Shown: one piece after another, positions 11,054 through 53,054 of the stretch
Layout of the letters: every line of letters starts with the position of its first letter
Position numbering within the stretch: position 1 is the first letter of the stretch
Source of the DNA: Paramarasmius palmivorus
Taxonomy: Eukaryota; Basidiomycota; Agaricomycetes; Agaricales; Marasmiaceae
Length of the DNA: 64,000 bases
NCBI GenBank assembly: GCA_037176845.1
Contig: JAYKXP010000119.1
Coordinates: 1-64,000, forward strand
Direction of reading: 5' to 3'
Translations under genes and position numbers: made by a program
Notes under the pieces: generated by a model
Database searches by the model: none
Told to the model about the DNA's origin: nothing
The model's input: the letters and a program-made list of their open reading frames with translations, nothing else

Positions 11054-14000
11054 CTACAGGGTTGGGTGATTATAATCACCATCATCTGCCAATTCGCCGA
11101 CCGAGAAGAAAGGCCCAGCTTTTGGACATTCATGAGCCCAGGAATACGAATCAGCGTGGGATGGATCGTATGTGAACGATCCATTGAGCTGGATGGTGCT
11201 CTTCGCATCCAAGGCATTCTTGAGTTGAGCAAGGAACTCTTTCTTGCCCCGAAACTGTTCCTTGATTGCTGACATGACTTGCTGGGAGCTTGGCTTGGTG
11301 GACTCCTTGGCTTGGCGAAGAAGTGCGCATACTTGCTGGATAAGCAAGGATTCGCGAAGATGTCGAATAGAGAGAGTGAACCACTTGTCATAATCATGCC
11401 AATCCTCCAGATAAAACCCACGTAAGACAAAATGAGTCTCAAACCAATCAAGCACCTGCTCTCCACGGGCAAGAGCATGGCTATAAAGCTTGACGTCTTC
11501 TTTGGGGACCGTTTCATGATTGTACTGTTCTCTCCAGAGGACCCGGCCCAGCTCCATGAGGTTCAGCAGATACAGGAAATCGAGCAATCCACTGAACAGT
11601 TGGAGGTTAGGCAAGTCAGACATCTGATCATTTGCTGCACCGTAAGCCAGGTAAAAATCTTCCTGGTCCAAGATCGTGGAAGCCCAAAACTCCATAATTC
11701 GAGAAAGCATTGCACGGTGACAGTCGTGCTCAGTGTTGGTGAAGTTATCGTGGTGGACCATGTGTAGTAGCGCCCAGCAAGTTCGGCGCATAGTCGACAT
11801 GCAATAAAAATGCCCTCCGCGACAGGCAGATGTTTCTATCGTCGAGACATAATGAACAGTCATAGGAGGCATGACTCTGAAAGGTAACAAGAAAATCAGG
11901 CGGGGTCAATATACAGCACAAAACCACACTCACATCGAGTCTCCAGCAGCTAATAAAAAGGTGACTACCTTGAATCCGACAGTGTTGCGTAAATTGAGTT
12001 CAAGTCCACGGAAAAACTCCAGAGACGCAGCTGGTGTCCAGTCGTCGATATTTTCTGGGATCAGAATAGACACGAGTTTGTAACCTTCTTGGACCGTAAT
12101 TATCGTGCAAAACCCCGCAGCATCGACATGACCTCGATGGAAAGCATGTTTCAAGGCAAACAGCGACCATCGAGTGTCAAGGACAAAAGAAGGTAGGGGA
12201 GCATCATCCTTGGGTCGAGCATCGTTGCAGGAATTGTATGCCACCATATCAGTGAAGAGTGCGGTGGGCATCCAAGTATTATCGCCGGACGAAGGCATCG
12301 AGAGAACGTTCACCGGTTTGACCTGTCCTTTTCCCTTTGAATGTTGCACCAATTGCCAAAGAGTGGCCTCGACATGAACCTCGTCAGGATCTGCGTCCTC
12401 TGTATTGGAGAAGAGTGACAAATCTGATAAAAATGTCATCAATTGGTCCTACTCTAGCTGAGATTAATACGAACCATGAACAGTACGGGGCGTAAAGATG
12501 TTGCCCAGAGACATTAACATCTCGATGATGGTGCGGTTGTCAAACTGATAGTTTTCGCCACGCTCGATAATATAGGGGACTTGGGCGAAGGAAACCTGGC
12601 GAGCAACTCCTTCATAGTGCAACCAATCATGAACCGTAATGTTCTGAACTCCCAAGACCTTGACGGCACCCTTGACCTTCACAACTGACGGCTCGGCCTT
12701 ATTGTTGTATTCACAGATTTGAAGCTTGGTTCTGGTCAACTTGTTTCCCTTTTCGATCAATTCGTCAAAATCCTCGAGATCATCCTCGAGGAACCGCTCC
12801 ACGGTATGCACGACAGGGGAGCCGCGGAGATCTCGTAGAACATATGTTTTCCCTATGACAGGCTGGATCTAGATAAGTAAAGAACTGGTATGGTCTTATA
12901 GAAATACTCACTTTGCGTTCAGTGAAATCCTCGAAGGGTGGCAAACCCGTGACAGTGTTGTGTGATTTAGACTTTGCAGTTTTGACGGGTTTTTTCTTCC
13001 TCAACGTCGGGGAAGTTGTACTGGTGTCTTTGCTCTTCTTCTTCAACGTGGTAGAGGCCTGGGAATCCTTCTTCTTCCGTTTTTTGGTACTGGTTGTCGA
13101 TCCCGCAGCGCCAGTGGTCGTCACATTCTTGTTCTTGTTACGATCAGAGCGTCTCACTGTAAGAGTAGTTAATAATTGCCTAGTCTTGGAATCTATTGCC
13201 TTACGGGTTAATTCAGGTTTGTCAGTCTCGAGGTCAGTCAACTCAGATTCTTCTCCCTCCGTCTCCTCCCCTGCTTCTTCCCCTTCCTCTTCGTTACCAT
13301 CTTCTTCCCCTTCATTGTTGCCTTCTCCTTCTTCCTTCTCCTGGTCTTCCTTGGCTTGACCTGGCTCCCCATCATTTATCTGTTGTTCTGTGGACATTTG
13401 GGAAGATGTAGGATCCTTATCAACGTCCATATCTTCATGAGAGTCCTCCTCTTCAACAACATCCATCTCCGTGTCGATGTCCATATCAACATGTGCGTCC
13501 ATGGCCTCTTGAATACCCCTCTCATCGTCGACAATCTCCTTGTCGATTTCCATGTCCCCATCGGCATCTTCAGTATCCATATGGTCCTCCTTTTCAACGT
13601 GTTTCTCTGCATCGCTATGCTCTTCGGATGACAGTTCTTCGTCCGTGTACCTCTCATAAGCAGAGGTATATGAAAACGATTTGTTAACAAACTTGTAATC
13701 GTCCTTGTCATCTGGGGGGATTTCTCCGTCGTCTGGCTCTTCGTCTGTGTCGGTGTCGTAGGCAGAGGAATGGGAAAACTCCTCCATGTCAATCTCCAGA
13801 TCATCCTCATCAGACACCCAGCTTTCTTCGTCGTCGTCTGGAATATAAAGAGGACTATCGGGCTGAAGCGCATCGTCTGCAGTCAAATCGAAAAAGGGTA
13901 TAGTCTGTACATCCCTTTCGATAGATGCACGAGTGTGCAAAGGATTCGCTGAGCCTAGACGGTAGAAATGAGTCGGGGGAGATGGCTGATACAGAGGAAG

Positions 14001-17000
14001 GTCGCTACTGGGGTCGAGTTGGCATGGAGAAGCAATCCTTATGGCGGCAGAATCCTTCAAGAATTGATCGACCATAGGATCTGGATGGAGCATGGGACTA
14101 ACAGCTTGCCCTGCCGTTCCACCACTTTGAATTGATGGATCTTCGTTGACCTGTCCTGAAAGTGCTACAGGACCGCGCTTTGAGGGTAATGGAACGTCAA
14201 CCTTCTCCTGACTAGGCTGTTCATCCGCAGGAGGAGGCATAGATTCGTGTTCACCATCTTTAGGTAATTCTTCTTCACCCTCTGACTCCTCCAAACCGCC
14301 TTCTTCGTCGCGGCCATTACTAACATCATCCATATCATACTCAGGCGTGAACCCTGGTGCTGGCTCCATGTAAAGGAGCATAGCGTTCGCGTCAACCTTG
14401 TGTGGCAGCACCTTGGGTGTGATGGGAACCCCAGTATCTCAAGAAAAAAAAGTTTTTGTCTCTTCGCCACATTGGAGAGAAAGGCCTTCCCACCGAGTAA
14501 GGAAGTTTCGAAGAGCTTGTTCTGCTGACCGATTCTGGGTTACCATCGACATGAGCTCCCTCCACAGAGCGTGTTCCGCAGCAACAAGAGCTAATGGTTT
14601 TGCATTGCCGTGGTGAAGCCAGAGCTAGACAAGTCAACTACCGTTCATGTTCGTTTGGGGATAGGAAACTCACTTGGGCCAAAGTACTGCGTTGTACTTT
14701 GGTGATCAAGTCTTCGCCCATGAGCAATAGCAAAGGAGAGACCATCGCTGCCGCATACAAAGGGCTTCGATACTTCCACGCATCGTACCCTCCTTTCACT
14801 TCTCCTTGGTCAGAGTCCCTGGAACCCATGTAAATTTCACTATCGTTAAAGTCTTGTGGACAGAAACTCACACATCTAGGAGTGCTTTCAACGCCTTTTT
14901 ATCCCCGGGAAGATCACTCGATCCCTATATGCGCATCAACTTTGTGTTTCGAGCCCGTCGCGTACATACTCACGAGCTTCATGCACGCCAAAAAAAATGC
15001 AGCGCCCTCCATATTTAATAGCGCAATATCTAGTGACACCTTCGTCCGGCGTTTTTCAATGGATTCCAGAAGCCTTCGAACAACATTGCCTTCAGGTATA
15101 TCTTGAGCAGCCGTTCGGTTATCAAGTTCGAGCTTCAAGGTTTCGAGTCGGGGTATCCAGTCTTCCAGATGATCTAATCCTGGCTAAGAGTAGGTGAGCA
15201 AATATGTATTAAGAAATTAACAAGTGTCAACGCACCACGCCTCGACGCTTCTCTGCTCTCATAAGGTATCTGGTACGGTCCAAAACGCGCGATGGGCAGG
15301 GTCCATTATCCATCGCTGCCAGTAGGTCGAAAAGTACATATAGAAACAGCGCCTGAAACGCAGGCTTGTGCTTTGTCGAGAATCGAATATCGTATCGTAC
15401 GACTGATACGAACGAGCGTTCGGGTTTGGTGCCGTATTTCTGGTTGATGACTGCAAGACCTTGTGTTGCAGCATTCTACAAAGACATACTGTACCATTTC
15501 GACCGACTGTTCATGGGGTGTGACCTGTGACCACAGACACCCAAGTGTTCACAAGTTCATGGCTCCGTGTGACCAGTGACCATCGCCGTGAACTGTTCAC
15601 AACTGTTCAGACAAATAGATTATCTCCATCCGCCATATCTGATTACATTGATGTAGATTACCCACACTCACGTGTTCCAATTTTTTTTTGTATCGTCCGC
15701 AAATCGCGCAGAAGCATTCAGAACACAAAAGATGGACAATTCCATTCGAAAATGGCGACGCAAGTACAAGGAATGGAAAGAAGTACCGAAAGATGTCCAG
15801 CAAGGCATCATTACCACTATTCTCGAACCACCTGCTGCTGTTCTTCAGCATGTTCTTCCCCCCAACGACGGATCAGTTAGTGCTCTACTTGACCACGAGC
15901 TACCCGCAATCCTATCCCGAAAGGTCTGTCAAGCAGACGACACCATGCCTTTCCTTCACGAGCCCGAGCCAAACTTTGATGAAACAGACCCTGATTTCCT
16001 CAGCCGAGTCATGCGACACCCAGTTCCTCCACCGGTCTTCATCCGTTCATTAGCCAAGCCTGCAAAGCAATATTGGCTGGATGGCGTCAGCTCCATCACC
16101 TACGAACATCTGCCGCTGAAGGGAGGAGGCTTCTTGTACCCCATGTGGATCATTACACTATGGAATCGCATCTTGATGGCCCATGAGTCAAAGGAGCAGT
16201 GGGCAACGGCGCAGTCATGGCTTGACAAATTGATGAAGGGGAAGAAGAAGGTGGTGGCAGAGGACGTGCGAGAAAGGGTCGAGAACGTAAAGGAATTGTT
16301 CGCGTGTCTACCGTGGAATCAGAAGAAGCAGGGTCTATCGAACGGCGATCCAATCCATACCTTGACACGGTACCTGGGACCCACATACACCTCCGATAGC
16401 AATCAAGCTGACATGCTTGAGCTTCTTCGCCTTCGGATTTCCACCAAGCTCGACCTTTCCCGTCGCTTTACCGTTGAGGATGTCTTCATGACGTCGAAGC
16501 TTCAAGAGGCATACACAAGGCGCCAATCAGACGTGTACAATATTGACCAGGGGTATGAGTGGCTTCGCAACCTAGCCGCTGAGTCAGTCAAACACAGGAA
16601 AACCATCATCACAAATGCACACCTCAAAGGAATCGCAGTTAGTGCTCTGGGCGAGGCCGAAAACCATTGGATTGCAGTTGCTTTAGACTTCAAGGCACAA
16701 GTCATTTGGATAGGAGAGCCCCTCGGAGGAGGGGCCCCTGCTGGATTGCTTAGCCTGTACCAGTGGTGGGTTAGCAACCATACTGCTAGCAAGTGGGTTG
16801 AAAAGCCCCTACCTATAACGGTTCAGATCGATGGCCATTCATGCGGGCCGTTAACATCAAATTGCCTAGAGCATTTTGTGTTCCCAGAGGTTCCTCTGGT
16901 GAGCACAAAGAATGTTCACGTATACCGTATGGATATCTTTTGTCGCCTTGCAAAACGGGTCCTGGAATGTGTGAGTGATTATGGATGAAGTTTTGATGGT

Positions 17001-20000
17001 CAACAATTTACTCACTCGCATGTTCTAGCTTGAGGATGATGGTGAAGACTCCTCACAAACTGATGGATCATCTCAATCAGACTCGGAGTTTGACAGCAGC
17101 GATGAAAGCGATGATGAATCCAGCTCTGAGGGGGACAGCGATTATGGTTACGGCACTGATGGAGAGAACGCAAGTGATGGTGGGCTGGAAAAGAGCACTG
17201 ATGATGACTGCAGCAGTGTCAATGGTGTGGGAGATGGTACCGGCAACTCTGCAGAGGATGTTAGTGGGGCAAAATCGGAGACTGAAGACATGCCCGTATC
17301 CACAGACTCACCTATCAGTCTTGGCGTCGAAAAGCCTAATGCTAATCCTCTACCGGAAAAGAAGTCACCAAAGGCTTCTTTGATTACGCGATTCTTCATG
17401 ACTGCGACACCTGAGGAGAAGGCAGCTCAGGATAAACGTGATTGGGATCAACTTGCAAACACTTACGATCAGCACCAAGTCAACGAAGCCAAACAGAAGG
17501 CAAAGGCTGCAACGAAGAAGCGGTTGGACGCTAGGGAGCGAAAGCAGGAACAACGGGCAAGAGACAAGATACGCAGAGAGGCCCTTAAGCAGAAGATGGT
17601 CAGTTCCGATTGGATTGTATGTTTGCGTCATTACTCACCGAAATGATAGGGATTAGTGCTGAGAGATGAGCAAAGCACAAGGTTGAACGTAGCTGAAGTG
17701 TCACGGCCACGTCGTGCGTTGAAGAAAGATATTCGCGCAAAGAAGAAGAAGCCTCAGGGACGGAAGCCCCTCAAGGAGGACGGAGAGACTGATTTAACCA
17801 ATTGGCAGCAGCCAATCCTATGGAGTGGGATTGTGCTGGCCGCTAAACGAACTGGCAAGCCTTGGTCTCCACGCGCGATTGTTCAGGAGTTACACCGAGT
17901 CAACTTTGAGCTGTATGGCAGGCTGAGGGAACAAGTTGTTGGGCGCTGGATAGATCGGGAGGCGAAGGCAAGGGGCGAATCAAAATGGCGTGATGAAATC
18001 CTTGAACGCGTCAAGAACGGAAATTCTCCAGGGGGTCAGACGACACGAACTGGGATCCTTGTAAGTCTATGATGGCATCCTCAGTTCCAAATGTCTGATA
18101 AATGATGTAGGAGCCATACCCTGAACTGCGTCGATCAATCAATGAGCGATTGGAAAGCCTGCGATTTGCAGGCGTACCACTCACGTCACTCTCAATCAGA
18201 GCCATAATGGTTGCCATGATCTCCAAGCAGGCACCTGAGATCTTCGAAACAGTTTTATCAGATGGGAGCCGCTTCAAATGTTCGGAATCATTTGTGAAGG
18301 ACTACCTGCACAAATTGAATTGGTCAAAGCGAAAGGCAACACGAGCAGCACAAAAGTTACCAGAAGACCATGCCGAACAGATTTACGCATCATTCCTCTT
18401 CGAGGCGCTCACAGTACGAGACCATGGAACACCTGCAGCATTGAGGGTGAACACGGATCAGGCACAATCAGTTTACCTTGAAGGGACAGATCATATCTGG
18501 AATAAAAGCGGCGAGCGACAGGTATCCACCATTGGTCAGGAGGAGAAGCGGGCCTTTACTGTCATCCCCTCAATTGCAGCTGACGGCACACTCCTGCCCT
18601 GGCAAGCAGTCTATCATGGCCAGACTAAGCTCTCATGTCCTGACCCAAAGACATCACGAGGCTGGGAGGAGTTGAATAAGCTTGGATTCCGTCTTCTACC
18701 ATCCAAGTCGCATACTTACTGGTCAACTCAAGAGACGATGCGGGACCTGGTAGATAATATCATTGCCCCATACTTCAGGGATGTTCGGAAGAAGCTTGGC
18801 CTGTCCCCCGACCATCGAGCAATCTGGCGCATCGATTGTTGGTCAGTTCACCGCTCGGAAGAGTTTCTGGGATGGATGAAGACTGCTCACCATGATATCA
18901 CAATCATCTTCGTTCCTGGAGGGTGTACTGGACTTTTTCAGCCACTTGATGTCGGCATCCAGCGGGTTATGAAGTTGGCAATGAGGCGGTCTTCACACCG
19001 CGATATAGTAGGGGAATTGATGGAGAAACTTGAACAGCATGCGGAAAAGCAGCTGAGCGAGGCTGAAGCGGTGGCAGATTTCAAGTTGGACGTTCGTCTG
19101 AAAACTGTTCGGGATCGTTCCGCAGGTTGGATGTTGTATTCCTATAGAGAAATCAATGATCAAGAGCTGATTATGAAGGTAAGCCTCACACACCTGTGAT
19201 TGTTCATATATTGACCAGCGGGAACAGGCCTTTGAGCTTTGTCGTGTACCTGACCAACCCTTCAACCTCTCTCATGCAAGCATCACCTCCCCTGAGGCCC
19301 TTGCTGCTCTTCGCGACCTCCCAACTCAAAATCTCAATCTCTACAAGAAGATAATAGGCCTCGGGACTGCCGAACCTGCTGATAACGGCGTAAAAGAGGC
19401 TGCATTTGAGGACCTTGATGCTGTCGTGGACGAGAGTGATGTGGTGACAACGGATTTGATTCAATTTTTGAAGAAGGGAGAACAGGGACTTCGAAAAGGG
19501 CTTGCTGTCAACGATGACGGCAATCTTGTCCGTTCGACTCAAGCAGATGAACCTAATGTCGACATCGGTGGCTTGGATATCGGAGAGCGGAATGGCGAGA
19601 AAAAGGTTCTGAAGGAGACTAGGCTGGGTCGTAGAGTGGTTGCCCCTAAACGTTTCGGTGGTTCTGAGCTTTGGGACGCAAATGATGACGACGATGAAGA
19701 CCCCTTACCTCAGCCCAAGAAAAATGCCCGGAAGCAAAAGAGAAAGGTCTCGTCTTCAGAGGATAAAGGGAAGAAGTCAAAAAAGAGTAGGAAGGGAAGG
19801 AAATCGTCCGCAGAGTGAAAGCTCGTCGTCATCATCGGCGTTGACACCCCCGTCAACTGTGGGAACAGGTTGCAGTGCTTGCCGCGGCTCTTAGACTTAC
19901 TCCGATACTCAAATTACTCAAAATTCATGTAACTACGCCCGTTTTAACTGATTTTTTTTACTCATATGTCACACAGTTCATGGCCGGGTGTGACCTAGGA

Positions 20001-20288
20001 CATAGGTGTCCAAGTGTTCATGTCACAAGGCTCTGTGACCTGTGACTGAACAGTCGGTCGAAATGGTACAGTAGTTTAGCACCGAATCCTTGTAGAATTT
20101 TACGATATTAATACCTGAGACTTCACAATCTGTTCCGCAGTCATCTCGAGCAAAATACGCGTATTCCAGGGGAATACAGCAATGTCCGTCCATCCCTTGG
20201 GATCAAGCTGGACGACCACTTCTTTCTTCGTGCGCCGTTTTTTCGCGTTTACAGCGACTTGAGAAGAGGAGGAGCTTTGAACATCCAT
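11054..20288 (-). CDS. JmjC-like 2OG-Fe(II) dioxygenase, intron 1 invaded by a transposon
   Basis: Exons on the minus strand: 20288-20115, 15475-15236, 15183-14974, 14924-14872, 14839-14674, 14624 to about 12912, 12868-12475, 12423-11934, 11876-11054 (about 1420 aa). Exon 1 starts MDVQSSSSS and ends KSQ. Exon 2 resumes NAATQGLAVI in the same phase, and the 4.58-kb element between them sits inside the intron. A large central region (about 14400-12912) is acidic (MD, ED, EE repeats) then Lys-rich, suggesting a nuclear protein. The C-terminal cupin domain shows AFHRGHVDAAGF (HxD ligands), PPMTVHYVS (third His) and GGHFY. JmjC enzymes hydroxylate or demethylate protein substrates; the substrate here is unknown. 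An in-frame TGA at 14439-14441, after a run of eight T on the coding strand, needs either a very short intron or is a real stop. It is divergent from the KOW gene at 20716. Confidence 0.7.
15489..15513 (+). repeat. Left terminal inverted repeat of the Ulp1-DDE element
   Basis: The 25-bp sequence starting CTGTACCATTTCG is matched exactly in reverse complement at 20047-20071. It is preceded by TA. Confidence 0.93.
15732..19818 (+). CDS. Ulp1-like cysteine protease fused to DDE transposase
   Basis: Five exons, all joined in phase 0: 15732-16970, 17029-17598, 17650-18060, 18111-19178, 19219-19818 (about 1295 aa). Start MDNSIRKW; an upstream in-frame extension has no ATG support. Residues about 1-413 end in a Ulp1/SENP-type protease domain: ENHWIAVALD (catalytic His), IGEPLG (Glu at the usual Asp position) and VQIDGHSCGPL (Gln and nucleophile Cys). 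An acidic Ser/Asp/Glu linker and a basic coiled region follow. The DDE domain in exons 3-4 shows RVNTDQAQS (Asp 1), WRIDCWSVH (Asp 2) and GGCTGLFQPLDVGIQ (Asp 3), as in the Tc1/pogo DDE_1 group. The C-terminus is Lys-rich, likely nuclear. The DDE part would cut and join the element's ends. The protease might act on SUMO-like conjugates, by family inference. Consistent phases and no stops suggest one intact gene, though two adjacent genes cannot be excluded without cDNA. Confidence 0.85.
20047..20071 (-). repeat. Right terminal inverted repeat of the Ulp1-DDE element
   Basis: Exact inverted copy of 15489-15513, ending ...GGTACAG and followed by TA at 20072-20073. Confidence 0.93.
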
Positions 20289-20715
20289 AATTTATCAAAT
20301 AATCTATTATCCGAACGGGTATCTGACTGTATTCTAACGAACGATGGTGGTGGTATAAAGGAAAGGGCAGAAGGATTGCTTACGTGTTCTGGTCATGAGG
20401 TTGACGGAAACTAGCGCTGAAAGTGGTTTCAGCGCCTGTACAAGTGTAACCCTAATGAAAAAATTCATTAGGGTTACACTTGTACAGGCGCTGAAACCAC
20501 TTTCAGCGCTAGTTTCCGTCTTGGGAATCATTGTTCCCACACGTGCAACTTCTGCACCTTGTTCCAAACCACCACCACTGGTAAGTTTTTGGCGTCTACC
20601 CAGATTGTTACTGTACTTTAAATGTGTTCAATGTATTACTGTATCATTCCTTTGCAAAATACAAATGAGAAGCCCAATAAACTGATCGTAAATTGAACAC
20701 AGACGCAAAGCCAAC
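20289..20715. promoter_or_regulatory. Divergent promoter region between JmjC-like and KOW genes
   Basis: The 427-bp interval lies between two starts pointing away from each other (20288 minus, 20716 plus). It contains the perfect palindrome at 20403-20520. Its flanks are themselves weakly inverted: GGTGGTGGT-type sequence near 20345 and its complement near 20570. No TATA box could be assigned with confidence. Shared regulation of the two genes is an inference from layout. Confidence 0.5.
20403..20520. repeat. Perfect palindrome, 57-bp arms and 4-nt loop
   Basis: Left arm 20403-20459 starts GACGGAAACTAGCGCTGAAA. It is matched base for base by the inverse arm 20464-20520 around an AAAA loop. 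Each arm contains a second, smaller inverted repeat (GCGCTGAAA-GTGG-TTTCAGCGC), so the DNA could form a branched cruciform. Open frames across it on both strands are a by-product of the symmetry and are not genes. Confidence 0.95.
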
Positions 20716-38200: not shown

Positions 38201-38889
38201 ATATGGGCTCTGAAGTCTATTGGGTCTAGTTGAACATTGTATCAGGCTACACCTAACGTGACAACGCGGTGTAGATTGAATGAACTGCTACCATGGAGTG
38301 CTTGTGGGACGCAGCGCTTCCTCGACGTCCTAAGTGGATCCTTATTGCCCTTTCTCGTACTCTAGACATCAGGATGGCACTCGGGATAGAGTGCAGGAGA
38401 ACGATGGCCAACGTCAAAAGTATATTAATACCCATACATCAGAATCTTGGTATATATAGTATGTGTATCCCTTTCCTGTGCAAATGCGACTGGCGCTACT
38501 GTGAATGGCTAGTGGCACCAACAAGACGGTAATGCATGTATAGAAATGTAGGATAGGCGAGAAAGCATAGTTTAAAATAGATAGATAGAAAAAGAATATG
38601 GCGCATATCGACGCAGGCTGTCTTTAATAAATATACGAATAGGATTTGTGATATAGCAAGGAACCAGCCAGTAATAGTATCATGCGAAACCAAGATAGCA
38701 AAGAACACAATGGCGAAGGTGCAGATGAAATATATACAGAAACTAGAAAGCATGATCGAAAGCGAACAAACGAAATGAGATAGCGTGGCATGAATATGGC
38801 AACAGATCTACAAAAAAGCTGAACCTACGAACAACGAATTAGCCAGAGAGTTCGTTCATCGAGTGAAAGAGGAAATAGACATACCTAAA

Positions 38890-40551
38890 TCATCCGATGT
38901 GCGGAATGAAAGTTGTCCATTGAACGGTTTGATATGCGCTTGGAGAGAGATCTCGTAGGGCGGTGAATGCGATAACGAGAAGGGTGATGCGGAAGACGAC
39001 GTATGCGAAAGAAAGGATGAAGGCAAGGATAATGGACAATGTTTCAATCCATCCTGGTGCTGAGTCATTCAACTTCTTCACATATACATGCAAGAACCCC
39101 ATCGCAATCGGCGCAACCGCAACCGCAACAGCTGATATCCGCCAAAGAAGCTGTTCGGTATGAGTGGGAAATTGGAAAACCCATGGGATGCAGTGGATGG
39201 CGCCGAAGAGAGTGGCGATTCCGTAGACGGCGATGTAAAGATGGAGAGGATCGTCGTCTAATCGGGAGGAGATTGGCATTGCTAAGTCGCTGTCGTCGCC
39301 GTCGAAGAGGATTCGGGAGCACAGCCAGAAGATGTGCCAGAGGATCCATAGCGGAAGGAGGAGAAGTCGGACAAATATGTTTCCAGGGCTGTCGATGATA
39401 TCAAAGAAGTCAAAGGCATAGATATACTCCACAATCGCATTGGCCCCCTCCCAGCACGTCCTCCAAATCCCTTCCTTCCCCCCATCGGTATCCCCTCCCA
39501 TCGACTTCTCCGTCTGTCTCCAATACACCCTCACAGGATGCCTAACTCGCAGGGGCTTGTTCCACCACAGGAAGTAAGTCCCAAAATTCAGGATCGCGAA
39601 TCCAACAGTAACGATCTCCAGCTCCGTGATAGCCAGACCCTCGACTGCGCGAGCGATGACCTGCGCGACGAACCAGATGGTTTGGATGACGGCGATGGAT
39701 TTGGTGATGACGTCGCTATGGCTGAGGTTGTCCTTGATCTCGTCTTCGGTGAGGGTGATGTAGCCTTTGGCGACGAGGAATTCGAGGATAGTTTGGGGTT
39801 TGTTGATGGTGAGGGGTTCATTCTCTGGGGTGTTTGCGGTGGAGGAATGATCATGTTGTTCCGAGGGCGTGGGTGATCCTGGTGTGTTCTCGTTGTGACT
39901 GCCCTGTAATGAAGCCTCCTTCAAACAGCACGATATATGGGTAAATGGTAGGGCTTACCGTGTTCTTGAGGCAATGTTTCCTGTGCTCCTCATGATAGCT
40001 CTTGATTTTCCTGAGATGTTTTTCTGCAGTTCCATCATACGGTCGGAGGATCGGATGATGACTTTGGTCTCTATCCCACAGATACCCACAGAACTTATCA
40101 CCGTCATACAACGCAAAACCTCCCATGATGACGAAGAACCCATGCGGCATTCCCCACCCGTATTCTGACAGGAGCACATTAGGAACAGCACTAGGAATCC
40201 AAGTGGACACGTACTTTTGAACCTATCACGAATCTCTTTTGCCTTCTCCCGCTGCCTCATTGCCCACAGAATCATAAACTCCGGCGCAAGAAGCGCTACA
40301 ATCATCAACTCGATGTTTTGGTAGACCGCTACCGCTGAATGAGTTCCTGGAACTGGAATGTTGGGGTGGATGGCGACCCAGGTGCAAATAAATATGACGG
40401 AAAGGCAGCTCCATAGTATTCCAGTGGTGGTACGGCAGCCGTTGATGTCGATGCATTCGCCCGTTATGGGATCGAAGGATGTAGAGTTGGTGGTGGAGGA
40501 GGCGGAGAGGCTGGAGGCGATGGGCCTCGCCAAGGCGTAGAGAAGGAGCAT
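38890..40551 (-). CDS. Polytopic membrane protein, copy A (intact)
   Basis: Three exons, 40551-40215, 40164-39959 and 39903-38890, keep frame and give about 518 aa. Start MLLLYALARPIASS looks like a signal or first membrane segment. The family motifs are CIDINGCRTTTGILWSCLS, CTWVAIHPNIP, PEFMILWAMRQR, HGFFVIMGGFALYDG and LAITELEIVTVGFAILNFG. About eight hydrophobic segments are visible, six in the long third exon. A Ser/Pro-rich soluble loop lies at the start of exon 3. It is an integral membrane protein of unknown function, of a type repeated in agaricomycete genomes. A paralogue with the same exon structure lies at 50383-52060. No disruption was seen. Confidence 0.88.
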
Positions 40552-40803
40552 GGAAGGGTGAGGAAGGGAGCTAGGATTGTGCGACCTTTATGCATGAAGG
40601 ACATGCGTTGAGCGTGTTGTCTGTGTGTTGTACATGCCGGCGTTTACTTTGACAGGTAGAACAGTGGACAGCCACTGCGGTGGAGCAGATGACTGGGAGC
40701 GAGGCAGAGGCGTGTCACAGAAGCTAAGAATAGCGAGAAGCATGGAAATGAGGACTTTGAGCGCTAAGATGAGATCATGGAAGAGAAGAACGCGATCGTG
40801 AGA
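40552..40803 (-). promoter_or_regulatory. Duplicated 5' flank of membrane gene A
   Basis: The 250 bp upstream of the start (GATTGTGCGACCTTTATGCA..., TTTGACAGGTAGAACAGTGG) are nearly the same as 52061-52323 upstream of copy B. Similarity ends abruptly near 40803 and 52323. The promoter was therefore duplicated with the gene. Confidence 0.7.
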
Positions 40804-41084
40804 AACCTGGGGTGGACCTGTGACCTTTCGGTCTTTTCGGGCTTCTATTCGCCGACCGAACCATGGTTTTCTTCTTTCTCTCTTGCACAGTTACCATATA
40901 CTGTATCTTGGGTTGTATTGATCTTCAGATCGTCCTGCTGGCTTGGGGAATCACACCGAGACGCAGGTAGACTCTGATGTTTCCTTATCTCAAAGGACTG
41001 TGTTCGCTGAGTCGCTTGAGCAAAACGCGGCGACAGGTAAGTACCTGAGGCAGTGCCTGCCAGGCACCGTCACGTCAGCGGAAA

Positions 41085-49560: not shown

Positions 49561-50382
49561 CGAAGATACCCGAGAAATCTGTAATAGCTCCCTAGACGAG
49601 ACGTCTAGGTATGGTAGCTGAGAGCCTTAAATCACCCGAGACCTGGACACAACGAGGTTTTATAACGACGTAGGTACAAGTACTGGGCAAAATAAGACTA
49701 ACAAAGGTAAAGAAATGGGCTTGTTTATATAGTGATAGTCCGGGTAAACGGGTAATGGGGGACCGGAGATTATAAGGGATGCATAGATGGTGAGAAGTAG
49801 GCGTAGGCGTTACAAAATCCTTGTCTACGTAAAGTACTCTACTACGCTCATGATGTCAGATATAGCCCGAGCAATATAAGTGAACAATGCGTCAGTTATG
49901 TCGCGCTCTTGATTGACACGAACACTCAGAAGTTGAGCCAACGCACTTCAAGGTACATCCCCAGGCAGATAGAGGCTAGCGTTGATACATCTTGACATAG
50001 TGTGTATGTATGTATCTTTCCTGCGCAGACACGACTGCGATACTGTGAAAAAATACGGCTAGCGGCACCAACAAGACGGTAATGCATGCATAGAAAGTAG
50101 ATATATAGATCGACATAGGCTGTTTCTAACGGATATAAGATTTGGATTTGCGGACATAGCGAAGAAACGGCTGGTGATAGCTCTACATGGAAACAAGAAT
50201 AGAAAATGATGACGACAGCAATGCATACGAGATATACATAGACGAAGGCAAGACCGAAAGCAAATAAACAGAACGAGATACATGAGGATATAACAACAGA
50301 TCGACCAAGAGCTGAACCTACGAAGAACGAATTAGCTATACAGTTCGTTTGTCGAGTGAAAGAGATGGTGGACGTACCTAAG

Positions 50383-52060
50383 TCAACCAATGTGAGGCCA
50401 AAAAGTCGTCCACTGGACTGTTTGATACGCGCTTGGACGGAGATCCCGTAGGGCGGTGAATGCGATGACGATAAGGGTGATGCGGAAGACAGCGTATGCA
50501 AGGAAAAGGATGAGGCTGATAATGCCCATCATGATTTTAACCCAATCTGGACTTGAATCCACCAACTTCTTGAAATACCCATGCAAAACCCCCATCACAA
50601 TCGGCGCAACTGCAACTGAAACAGCTGATATACGCCAAAGTAGCTGTTCGGTATGAGTCGGAAATTGGAAAACCCATGGGATGCAGTGGATGGCGCCGAA
50701 GAGAGCGGCGATTCCGTAGACAGCAATGTAAAGGTAGAGAGGGTCGTTGTCTAATCGGGAGGAGATTGGGATTGCTAAGTTGCTGTCGTCACTGTCGGTG
50801 AGGATGTTCCCACATATGTTGAAGATGTGCGATGGGATCCATAGCGGAAGGAGGATTAGTCGGAGAAATATGTTGTCAGGGCCTTCAAAGGAATCAAACA
50901 GCCCGAGGGCATAGATATACTCCACAATCGCACCAGCCCCCTCCCAGCACACCCCCCAGATCCCTCGCTTATCCCCATTGGTTTCCCTTGCCCCCGACTT
51001 CTCCGTCTGCCTCCAATACACCCTCACAGGATGCCTAACCCGCAGGGGCTTGTTCCACCATAGGAAGTACGTCCCAAAGTTCAGAATTGCGAAGCCAACA
51101 GTGATGATCTCTAGTTCCGTGATAGCCAGACCCTCAGCTGCTCGAGTGATGACCTGCATGATGAACCAGATGGTTTGGATGACAGCGATGGATTTGGTGA
51201 TGACGTCGGCATGGCTTTTGTCCTTGATCTCATCTTCGGTGAGGGTAATGTAACCTTTGGCGACAAGGAATTCAAGGGGCGTTGTAGGGTCGGGGGTGGG
51301 GGACAAGGGGCCGGTCTCTACAGGTTTCGTGATGGAGGGATTTTCATGAATTGCTGGTGTAGATGATTCCGAGTTCTTCTCGTCATTTCTGTCCTGGTCG
51401 GCAAGAAGGATCAAATGTGGTCCCATATGAAAAGAAAAGGTACATGACGCACCGTGTTCTCCACCTTTTGATGCTTTTCATGATAGGCCTTGATGATCTC
51501 AAAGTAGCCCTCTGCATTCCCTTCGAACGGTCTCTCATCTGCATAATGAATCTCTGATGTCCGGTCCCTATCCCAAAGATACCCGCAGAACTTCTTCCCA
51601 TCGTATAACGCAAACCCGCCCATAATCACGAAGAAACCGTGTGACATCCCCCACTCGTGCTCTGAGAGGCAAACATCAGCAGCGGCACTAGTAATCCAAG
51701 CATACACGAACCCTTGAACCTCTCTTGAATCTTCTTTGCCTGCTTCCGCTGCCTCATCGCCCACAGGATCATAAACTCGGGGGCAAGGAGGGCTACAACC
51801 ATCAACTCGACCTTTTGGTAAAGCAGGGCCGCTGGGTGCCATGGCTTCCCTTGCTTATCCTGCACAGTTGGAATGTTGGGGTGAATGGCTACCCATGTGC
51901 AGATGAAAATGACCGAGAGACAACTCCAGAGGATGCCGGTGGTGGTGCGACACCCGTTGATATTGATGCATTCGCCCGTTATGGGATCGAAGGATGTGGA
52001 GTTGGTGGAGGCGGAGAGGCCGGAGGCGATGGGTCTCGCAACCGCATAGAGGAGGAGCAT
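50383..52060 (-). CDS. Polytopic membrane protein, copy B (intact)
   Basis: Three exons, 52060-51712, 51661-51453 and 51393-50383, give about 522 aa with the same intron positions as copy A. Start MLLLYAVARPIAS. It shares GILWSCLSVIFICTWVAI, PEFMILWAMRQR, SHGFFVIMGGFALYDG, LEFLVAKGYITLTEDEIKD and the C-terminal ALRDLRPSAYQTVQWTTF. The first donor is the less usual GTTCGT. Variable parts are the loop after HPNIP and the Ser/Pro linker at the start of exon 3. About eight hydrophobic segments; function unknown. It has no stops, so both tandem copies may be expressed. Confidence 0.88.
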
Positions 52061-52323
52061 TGAAAGGTGAGGAAGTGAACTAGGATTGTGCGACCTTTAT
52101 GCATGAAGGACATGCGTTGAGCGTGTTGTTCGTGTGTTGTACATGCCGGCGTCTACTTTGACAGGTAGAACAGTGGACAGTCACTGCGGGGGAGTAGATG
52201 ACAGGGAGTGAGGCAGAGGCGTGTTGGAGAAGCTAAGAATAGCAGCGAGCATGGAAATGAGGTGAAATGAAGACTTTGAGCGCCAAAATGTGATCATGGA
52301 AGAGAAGAACGCGGTCGTGAGAA
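52061..52323 (-). promoter_or_regulatory. Duplicated 5' flank of membrane gene B
   Basis: Matches 40552-40803 (GATTGTGCGACCTTTATG, TGTTGTACATGCCGGCG, AGAAGAACGCG). Homology stops near 52323, where the flanking DNA becomes unrelated. Confidence 0.7.
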
Positions 52324-53054
52324 AGGAGTATTCTATTGAGAAACCCGGTTTCCGAAAGCAGCTATTTAGTAACCTGGTTTCTCGGCCGGAGAGATGGCCG
52401 GCCACGGCCTTTCACACCACTCTGGCAGCGCGTCGCCACTGCGCGTCTTGAATATTTGAATCTTCATGTTCATCGGCGCCTTTCTGTTTCATGGATGATG
52501 TATATGGCCCAGCTCTCATCTTTCACATATGTAGAATCCAGTAGCCCGATCTGTATAGCTTGAGTTGCGTGAAAGCTACAATAAGAAGGCACAAACGACA
52601 AATCGAAGTCTTCAGTGATCCTATCCATTAGCGATAGCAGTCTCGAAACTTGTATTTACATGTGTACGACGTAAAGCGATACCGTGATATGTATTCAGTA
52701 ACTTCAATCTTGAAATGTTCTACTGCCAGTCCAATGTTATACTATTATCGTGCAACGTCTTCAACTCGGGAGTCAGGGCGCCATTTGAGGTCATCCAATA
52801 TTTGAGAGACATTCTTTCACCACCAATTACCACTTTTATAACAGTATATTACTTGCAGTACGTGTTGTAGTAGGGGCTACCGGCATAGTCCGAGCCGGTC
52901 TAGCGGTCACGTGAGCTCTATCTATGTAGTCATTCCTGTCGTAGCTACCTTTACCAATCGCATCCACCGCGTTAGCAGTAGCTAGGGCTTCCTCAGCCCC
53001 TCCTTGCCCACTCCATCTGGTGACGAGAGCGCGATTCGTCTACCACATCTTTTC
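52324..53054. other. Intergenic stretch, nothing recognised
   Basis: No gene, repeat or motif supported here. Confidence 0.4.

What the first reader, a model, noticed from the sequence alone, without database searches (positions are those of the whole stretch)
15476..20114. DNA transposon inserted antisense in intron 1 of the JmjC-like gene
Exon 1 (ending KSQ at 20115) and exon 2 (starting NAATQ at 15475) are in phase across the insertion. Removing 15489-20071 plus one TA leaves a roughly 50-nt intron with GT and TAG ends, typical for this genome. The host gene could survive if the 4.6-kb intron is spliced, or be silenced by antisense transcription from the element.
Basis: seen in the sequence. 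Interest (0 to 1): 0.75.

Follow-up and report, generated by a model that had tools for sequence, protein, structure and literature searches.

The report
Jumping gene inside a fungal intron
In a mushroom-forming fungus, a 4.6-kb DNA transposon that joins a SUMO-protease-like domain to a mariner-like transposase sits inside a tiny old intron of a JmjC-like gene and probably disturbs that gene's splicing.

Summary
The window is Paramarasmius palmivorus (Agaricales). A 4,583-bp element (15489-20071) with 25-bp perfect TIRs and a TA duplication lies antisense in intron 1 of a JmjC-like gene. Of 8 paralogous loci fetched, 7 could be read; all 7 (at most 6 independent) have a short phase-0 intron (46-71 nt) at the same aligned column (6) or one column off (1). 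The empty intron would be 54 nt. One annotated paralogue aligns across both exons (E 3e-20). The public host model starts at Met113, in exon 2, and lacks exon 1.

The insertion separates the likely branch site from the 3' splice site, so clean splicing of 4.6 kb looks less likely than cryptic splicing, loss or truncation; the branch-site test is weak. No RNA data were available, and antisense silencing is untested.

The element encodes one uninterrupted 1,292-aa protein: an N-terminal Ulp1/SENP-fold domain, with Glu at the usual Asp place, plus a Mos1-like DD37D transposase. Similar fusions are predicted in other Agaricomycetes. I found no description in five searches of the held library.

The parts
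15489..20071 (+). 4,583-bp DNA transposon
   Evidence: perfect TIRs, TA on both sides, a decayed relative and short elements with similar ends elsewhere in the genome
15489..15513 (+). left terminal inverted repeat, 25 bp
   Evidence: first mismatch at base 26
20047..20071 (-). right terminal inverted repeat, 25 bp
15487..15488 (.). target-site duplication TA (left)
20072..20073 (.). target-site duplication TA (right)
15732..19818 (+). transposase gene VNI00_016160, 1,292 aa; exons 15732-16970, 17029-17598, 17650-18060, 18111-19178, 19228-19818
   Evidence: spliced model compared residue by residue with P0002, no difference (exons as, comparison); P0002
15732..16970 (+). exon 1, Ulp1/SENP-fold (C48) protease-like domain; H312, E329 at the usual Asp place, Q365, C371
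18111..19178 (+). exon 4, DDE_1 / mariner-like catalytic core; D856, D982, D1020 (DD37D)
20115..20288 (-). host gene exon 1 (58 codons, MDVQ...KSQ), absent from the public model
15236..15475 (-). host gene exon 2 (NAATQ...); the public model starts inside it at Met113
11054..15183 (-). host gene exons 3-11, with the JmjC-like region at the 3' end
   Evidence: equals P0001
20074..20114 (-). 5' part of the old 54-nt intron 1, with branch-site candidate TGCTAAA (branch A at about 20076, counted on the sequence)
15476..15486 (-). 3' part of the old intron 1, ending in TAG

Best explanation
Shown: an element with the anatomy of a cut-and-paste Tc1/mariner-type transposon and an uninterrupted transposase gene sits at a TA inside what was a 54-nt, phase-0 intron 1 of a JmjC-like gene, in the opposite orientation; paralogues keep the short intron. 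Inferred: the transposase, joined to a SUMO-protease-like domain, moved it there. The 5' splice site and likely branch site are now on one side and the 3' splice site is 4.6 kb away, so the normal mRNA is mostly lost. Exon 1 would run on to a stop in the intron or splice to an AG in the element's right end. Exons 2-11 would at best give a shorter product from Met113.
For: Insertion: TIR, TA and empty-site reconstruction. Old intron: 7 of 7 readable paralogous loci (8 fetched) have a phase-0 intron, 6 at the host's alignment column and 1 a column off, 46-71 nt. Same gene: P0024 aligns across both exons, 54 of 192 identical, E 3e-20. Splicing: branch candidate TGCTAAA 15 nt before the end of the empty intron scores 4.43; best in the last 45 nt of the occupied intron 1.35; 17 reference introns 2.31-8.93 leave-one-out. 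First AGs, 29 and 35 nt after the presumed branch A, lie in the element (offsets). Unspliced exon 1 meets a stop after 4 intron codons. The public model lacks exon 1. Possible recent activity: uninterrupted 5-exon gene, and two short elements 99% identical to each other whose right ends are 95% identical to this one's.
Against: No transcript was seen, so every step after the insertion is inference. The branch-site model rests on 17 introns whose sites I first picked with a CTRAY-like consensus; random 60-nt windows reach the empty-site score in 27%, the occupied score in 80% and even the lowest reference score in 60% of 5,000 draws. Nineteen antisense acceptors with good branch-like sites lie deeper in the element, so stepwise splicing is possible. 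Exon 2 alone finds only itself in the genome, and the P0024 query reaches host exon 2 only at E 0.86. A missing exon in an automatic gene model says nothing about RNA.
Confidence: 0.65

Rival explanations
1. The element is a tolerated long intron: the spliceosome removes all 4,639 nt and a normal 1,386-aa protein is made.
For: Both splice sites are in place and in phase. With the public introns the exons show no stop or frameshift.
Against: Branch-site candidate and acceptor are now 4.6 kb apart, and the best replacement in the last 45 nt scores below all 17 reference introns, in a weak test. The 13 other introns of the two genes are 33-58 nt. The public model does not bridge it.
Confidence: 0.25
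2. The host gene is silenced by antisense RNA or by chromatin aimed at the element.
For: The transposase gene (15732-19818) reads towards host exon 1 (20115-20288) on the other strand, so run-through would be antisense to it.
Against: No RNA, small-RNA or methylation data; nothing here tests it.
Confidence: 0.1
3. Exon 1 belongs to another gene, or the insertion is an assembly error.
For: The public model starts in exon 2; exon 2 alone finds no paralogue at E 0.001.
Against: Paralogue alignment across both exons and shared intron position; TA-TIR-TIR-TA structure.
Confidence: 0.03
4. The Ulp1-like and DDE parts are two adjacent genes wrongly merged by gene prediction.
For: The parts are joined only through predicted introns of 49-58 nt; the other fusions are gene predictions too.
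Against: 18 of 21 aligned proteins have C at the Ulp1 Cys column and D at the first DDE column (one of them, P0022, lacks the His and Gln and is doubtful). 4 of 22 hits carry both precomputed Pfam domains.
Confidence: 0.1

Closest known systems
Tc1/mariner superfamily (Mos1, SETMAR/Metnase, Sleeping Beauty catalytic domains)
   Different: 1,292-aa protein with an N-terminal Ulp1-like domain; 8-12% identity to those structures
maT elements (Tc1 family, group 11 of PMC7325037)
   Same: DD37D spacing, and hosts that include basidiomycetes (passages read)
   Different: Relationship not tested by a tree; no Ulp1 domain is mentioned in the passages seen
pogo/Fot1 elements
   Same: DDD triad; Fot1 is a fungal pogo element (PMC7325037, passages and section 10 read)
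   Different: DD37D here against DD30D to DD35D in that section; no CENP-B-type Pfam hit
Ginger1 transposons
   Same: Ulp1 protease domain joined to a DDE transposase (PMC2836005, passages read)
   Different: There the Ulp1 domain is C-terminal and the transposase is of the Gypsy-integrase type; here it is N-terminal and the DDE is mariner-like
Mutator elements with Ulp1 domains
   Same: Ulp1 domain in a DNA transposon (stated in PMC2836005)
   Different: Another transposase superfamily; TA duplication here

Membership tests
Tc1/mariner superfamily | TA target-site duplication | tested here: met
   for this element; for short relatives
Tc1/mariner superfamily | terminal inverted repeats | tested here: met
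   25 bp, 100%
Tc1/mariner superfamily | DDE/D catalytic core of the family's fold | tested here: met
   DDE_1 above cut-off; best fold matches are Mos1 (E 1.3e-4) and SETMAR/Mos1; three Asp columns
Tc1/mariner superfamily | placement in the superfamily tree | not tested
   no tree was built
pogo/Fot1 | DDxD spacing 30-35 | tested here: not met
   37 residues between D2 and D3; range from PMC7325037 section 10
pogo/Fot1 | HTH plus CENP-B-like DNA-binding domain | tested here: inconclusive
   no CENP-B Pfam hit; HTH_33 below cut-off
Ulp1/SENP (C48) cysteine proteases | fold | tested here: met
Ulp1/SENP (C48) cysteine proteases | His-Asp-Cys triad with Gln | tested here: inconclusive
   H312, Q365, C371 present; E329 in a column with 15 Asp, 2 Asn and 1 Glu among 18 letters; residue roles recalled
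Ulp1/SENP (C48) cysteine proteases | cleavage of SUMO or ubiquitin | not testable with these tools
   needs an assay

The most novel reading that the evidence does not exclude
The element has rewired the gene: exon 1 is captured by an acceptor in the element's right end, and the element's left end acts as a two-way promoter that drives the transposase one way and an N-terminally shortened JmjC protein from Met113 the other way. The carrier belongs to an unnamed Agaricomycete lineage of mariner-type transposons that carry their own SUMO protease.
Probability: 0.15. Interest if true: 0.6.

Novelty: new variant of a known kind. Interest (0 to 1): 0.4.

Why it matters
Insertions in introns are common, but here the old intron, its position in paralogues and the break between likely branch site and acceptor can all be read, so a simple RNA test can show how a fungal intron of about 50 nt copes with a 4.6-kb insert. 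The element also joins a SUMO-protease-like domain to a mariner-type transposase, which raises the question whether SUMO removal helps transposition in fungi.

Tried and rejected
An allele or recent duplicate without the element: each flank and exon 2 found only themselves in the assembly. Dating by copies: not possible; the only close transposase copy found (C4) is 71% identical with 5 stops and broken into pieces. Further matches on C221 and C296 are 32-41% identical. These searches give lower bounds.

Two apparent lesions in the host gene (a frame break after exon 3, a TGA before DTGVP) were rejected: the public protein explains both by introns, one of 33 nt.

The palindrome 20403-20520 as a second mobile element: no other copy at E 10 or less.

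Bacterial promoter/terminator scan of the element's left end: not meaningful in a fungus. Host homologues elsewhere: the N-terminal region found only P0001 (303 candidates), the C-terminal region 3 proteins, all of this species (590 candidates); the search needs shared exact words, so distant ones can be missed. Profiles A2 and A3 against solved structures found Ulp1/SENP-type proteases and a few weak unrelated chains, no transposase chain.

Literature: searches of the held library listed no paper whose title or abstract start describes Ulp1 joined to a mariner- or pogo-type fungal transposase; most listed papers were seen as listings only. PMC12730594 holds none of five terms, Ulp1 and Tc1 among them. 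PMC5751038 was not held.

Rows dropped: P0023 left out of A1 (21 of 22 hits used); A2 has the exon plus 18 of those proteins, A3 the exon plus 11. The protein search scored only the 7,994 candidates sharing most words. Of 8 loci fetched for the intron check, L070 was not used because I recognised no exon 1; a weak exon-1-region hit on C98 (E 0.445) was not fetched. L065 and L066 are 99.8% identical, so the 7 loci are at most 6 independent ones. I chose the acceptors by eye, in phase; for L063 the choice agrees with the annotated protein P0024. The shared column was not tested against chance. From the 17 reference introns I left out those of L064 and L066 (near or exact copies) and the 33-nt host intron.

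Full report
Where it is. The window is the first 64 kb of contig C119 (147,213 bases) of a 68.3-Mb assembly. The two proteins are VNI00_016159 and VNI00_016160 of Paramarasmius palmivorus, from a contig of the same length; the species is in Agaricales, Marasmiaceae.

Relatives. The protein search gave 22 hits including itself, in Mycena, Agaricus, Hohenbuehelia, Pholiota, Lyophyllum, Tricholomella, Ceratobasidium, Rhizoctonia, Cylindrobasidium and Hymenopellis (a capped candidate list). Scanned one by one, 17 of 21 reach DDE_1 and 11 of 21 the C48 family at E 0.01. In its own genome this is the only uninterrupted copy found. C4 holds a decayed copy whose remains include Ulp1-like and DDE parts, so the arrangement is not unique to this copy. 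Short elements with similar ends exist. C11 (225 bp) and C17 (213 bp) are 99% identical over 204 bp, and their right ends are 95% identical to this element over 60 bp. C45, C277 (250 bp each), C205 (265 bp) and C306 (266 bp) form a more distant set. A scan for TA plus the first 16 TIR bases with up to 2 mismatches found 29 sites, against 5 for the reversed control pattern.

The host gene and its intron. With exon 1 included, the host model encodes 1,386 aa and equals the public protein from Met113, so the public model lacks 112 residues. To ask whether exons 1 and 2 are one gene, I compared paralogues in the same genome. The annotated protein P0024 aligns across the junction (54 of 192 identical, E 3e-20). 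At DNA level, 7 of 8 loci fetched could be read. All 7 have a GT-AG phase-0 intron, of 71, 71, 51, 51, 46, 66 and 48 nt; six at the host's alignment column, one a column earlier. Two of the seven are 99.8% identical copies. I chose the acceptors by eye, in phase; one choice is backed by the annotated protein P0024. The host's empty intron would be 54 nt. Against this, exon 2 alone finds only itself, and a P0024 query reaches host exon 2 only at E 0.86: the paralogues are distant.

What the insertion does to splicing (inference). A branch-site matrix from 17 introns picks TGCTAAA, 15 nt before the end of the empty intron, as the only good candidate (4.43; next -0.25). The TA target begins 3 nt after the presumed branch A. 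In the occupied intron the best site in the last 45 nt scores 1.35, below all 17 reference introns tested leave-one-out (2.31-8.93, median 6.12). The test is weak: of 5,000 random windows 27% reach 4.43, 60% the lowest reference score and 80% the occupied score. The first AGs after the old branch site lie inside the element's right end, and reading through from exon 1 meets a stop after four codons. I therefore rate clean removal of the whole intron as less likely than loss or truncation, but transcripts must decide.

Comparison with what is known. The features tested fit the Tc1/mariner superfamily (TA, TIR, DDE_1, fold); no tree was built. The pogo/Fot1 spacing is not met (37 against 30-35; PMC7325037, section 10 read). 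The same paper gives DD37D to maT elements, with basidiomycete hosts among them (passages). Ulp1 domains in transposons are known from Ginger1, at the C-terminus, and from Mutator elements (PMC2836005, passages read). PMC10799480 (one passage seen) ties DDE_1 to Tc1-Mariner in fungi. I found no paper on a mariner-type element with an N-terminal Ulp1 domain in the held library (searches, mostly seen as listings); papers outside it were not searched.

Verdict. As an event it is ordinary; the fused transposase and the readable break of a shared mini-intron raise it somewhat. Interest 0.4.

Noticed in passing
window 20403-20520: A perfect 57-bp inverted repeat with a 4-nt loop upstream of host exon 1; no other copy found in the assembly. 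Could be a template-switch product or an assembly artefact.
   Followed up: partly
C11:900703, C17 near 420,500, C45:147,481, C277:18,822, C205:39,935, C306:4,099 (loci L013, L075, L071-L074): Short elements without the gene, with TIRs like those of the finding's element, in at least two families.
   Followed up: partly
window 14438-14470: A 33-nt intron in the public host model, the shortest of the introns read in the two genes.
   Followed up: no
window 38814-40805 and 50307-52324: Long direct repeats about 11.5 kb apart, 80-92% identical in pieces, pointing to a segmental duplication.
   Followed up: no
L065 (C54) and L066 (C41): JmjC-like paralogues 99.8% identical over 1,603 bp on two contigs: a recent duplication or an uncollapsed haplotype.
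   Followed up: no
own genome, many contigs: A family of genes related to the host gene: 38 matches at E 1e-5 or less, the host's own included and several per gene, with almost no Pfam JmjC signal in the three proteins tested.
   Followed up: partly
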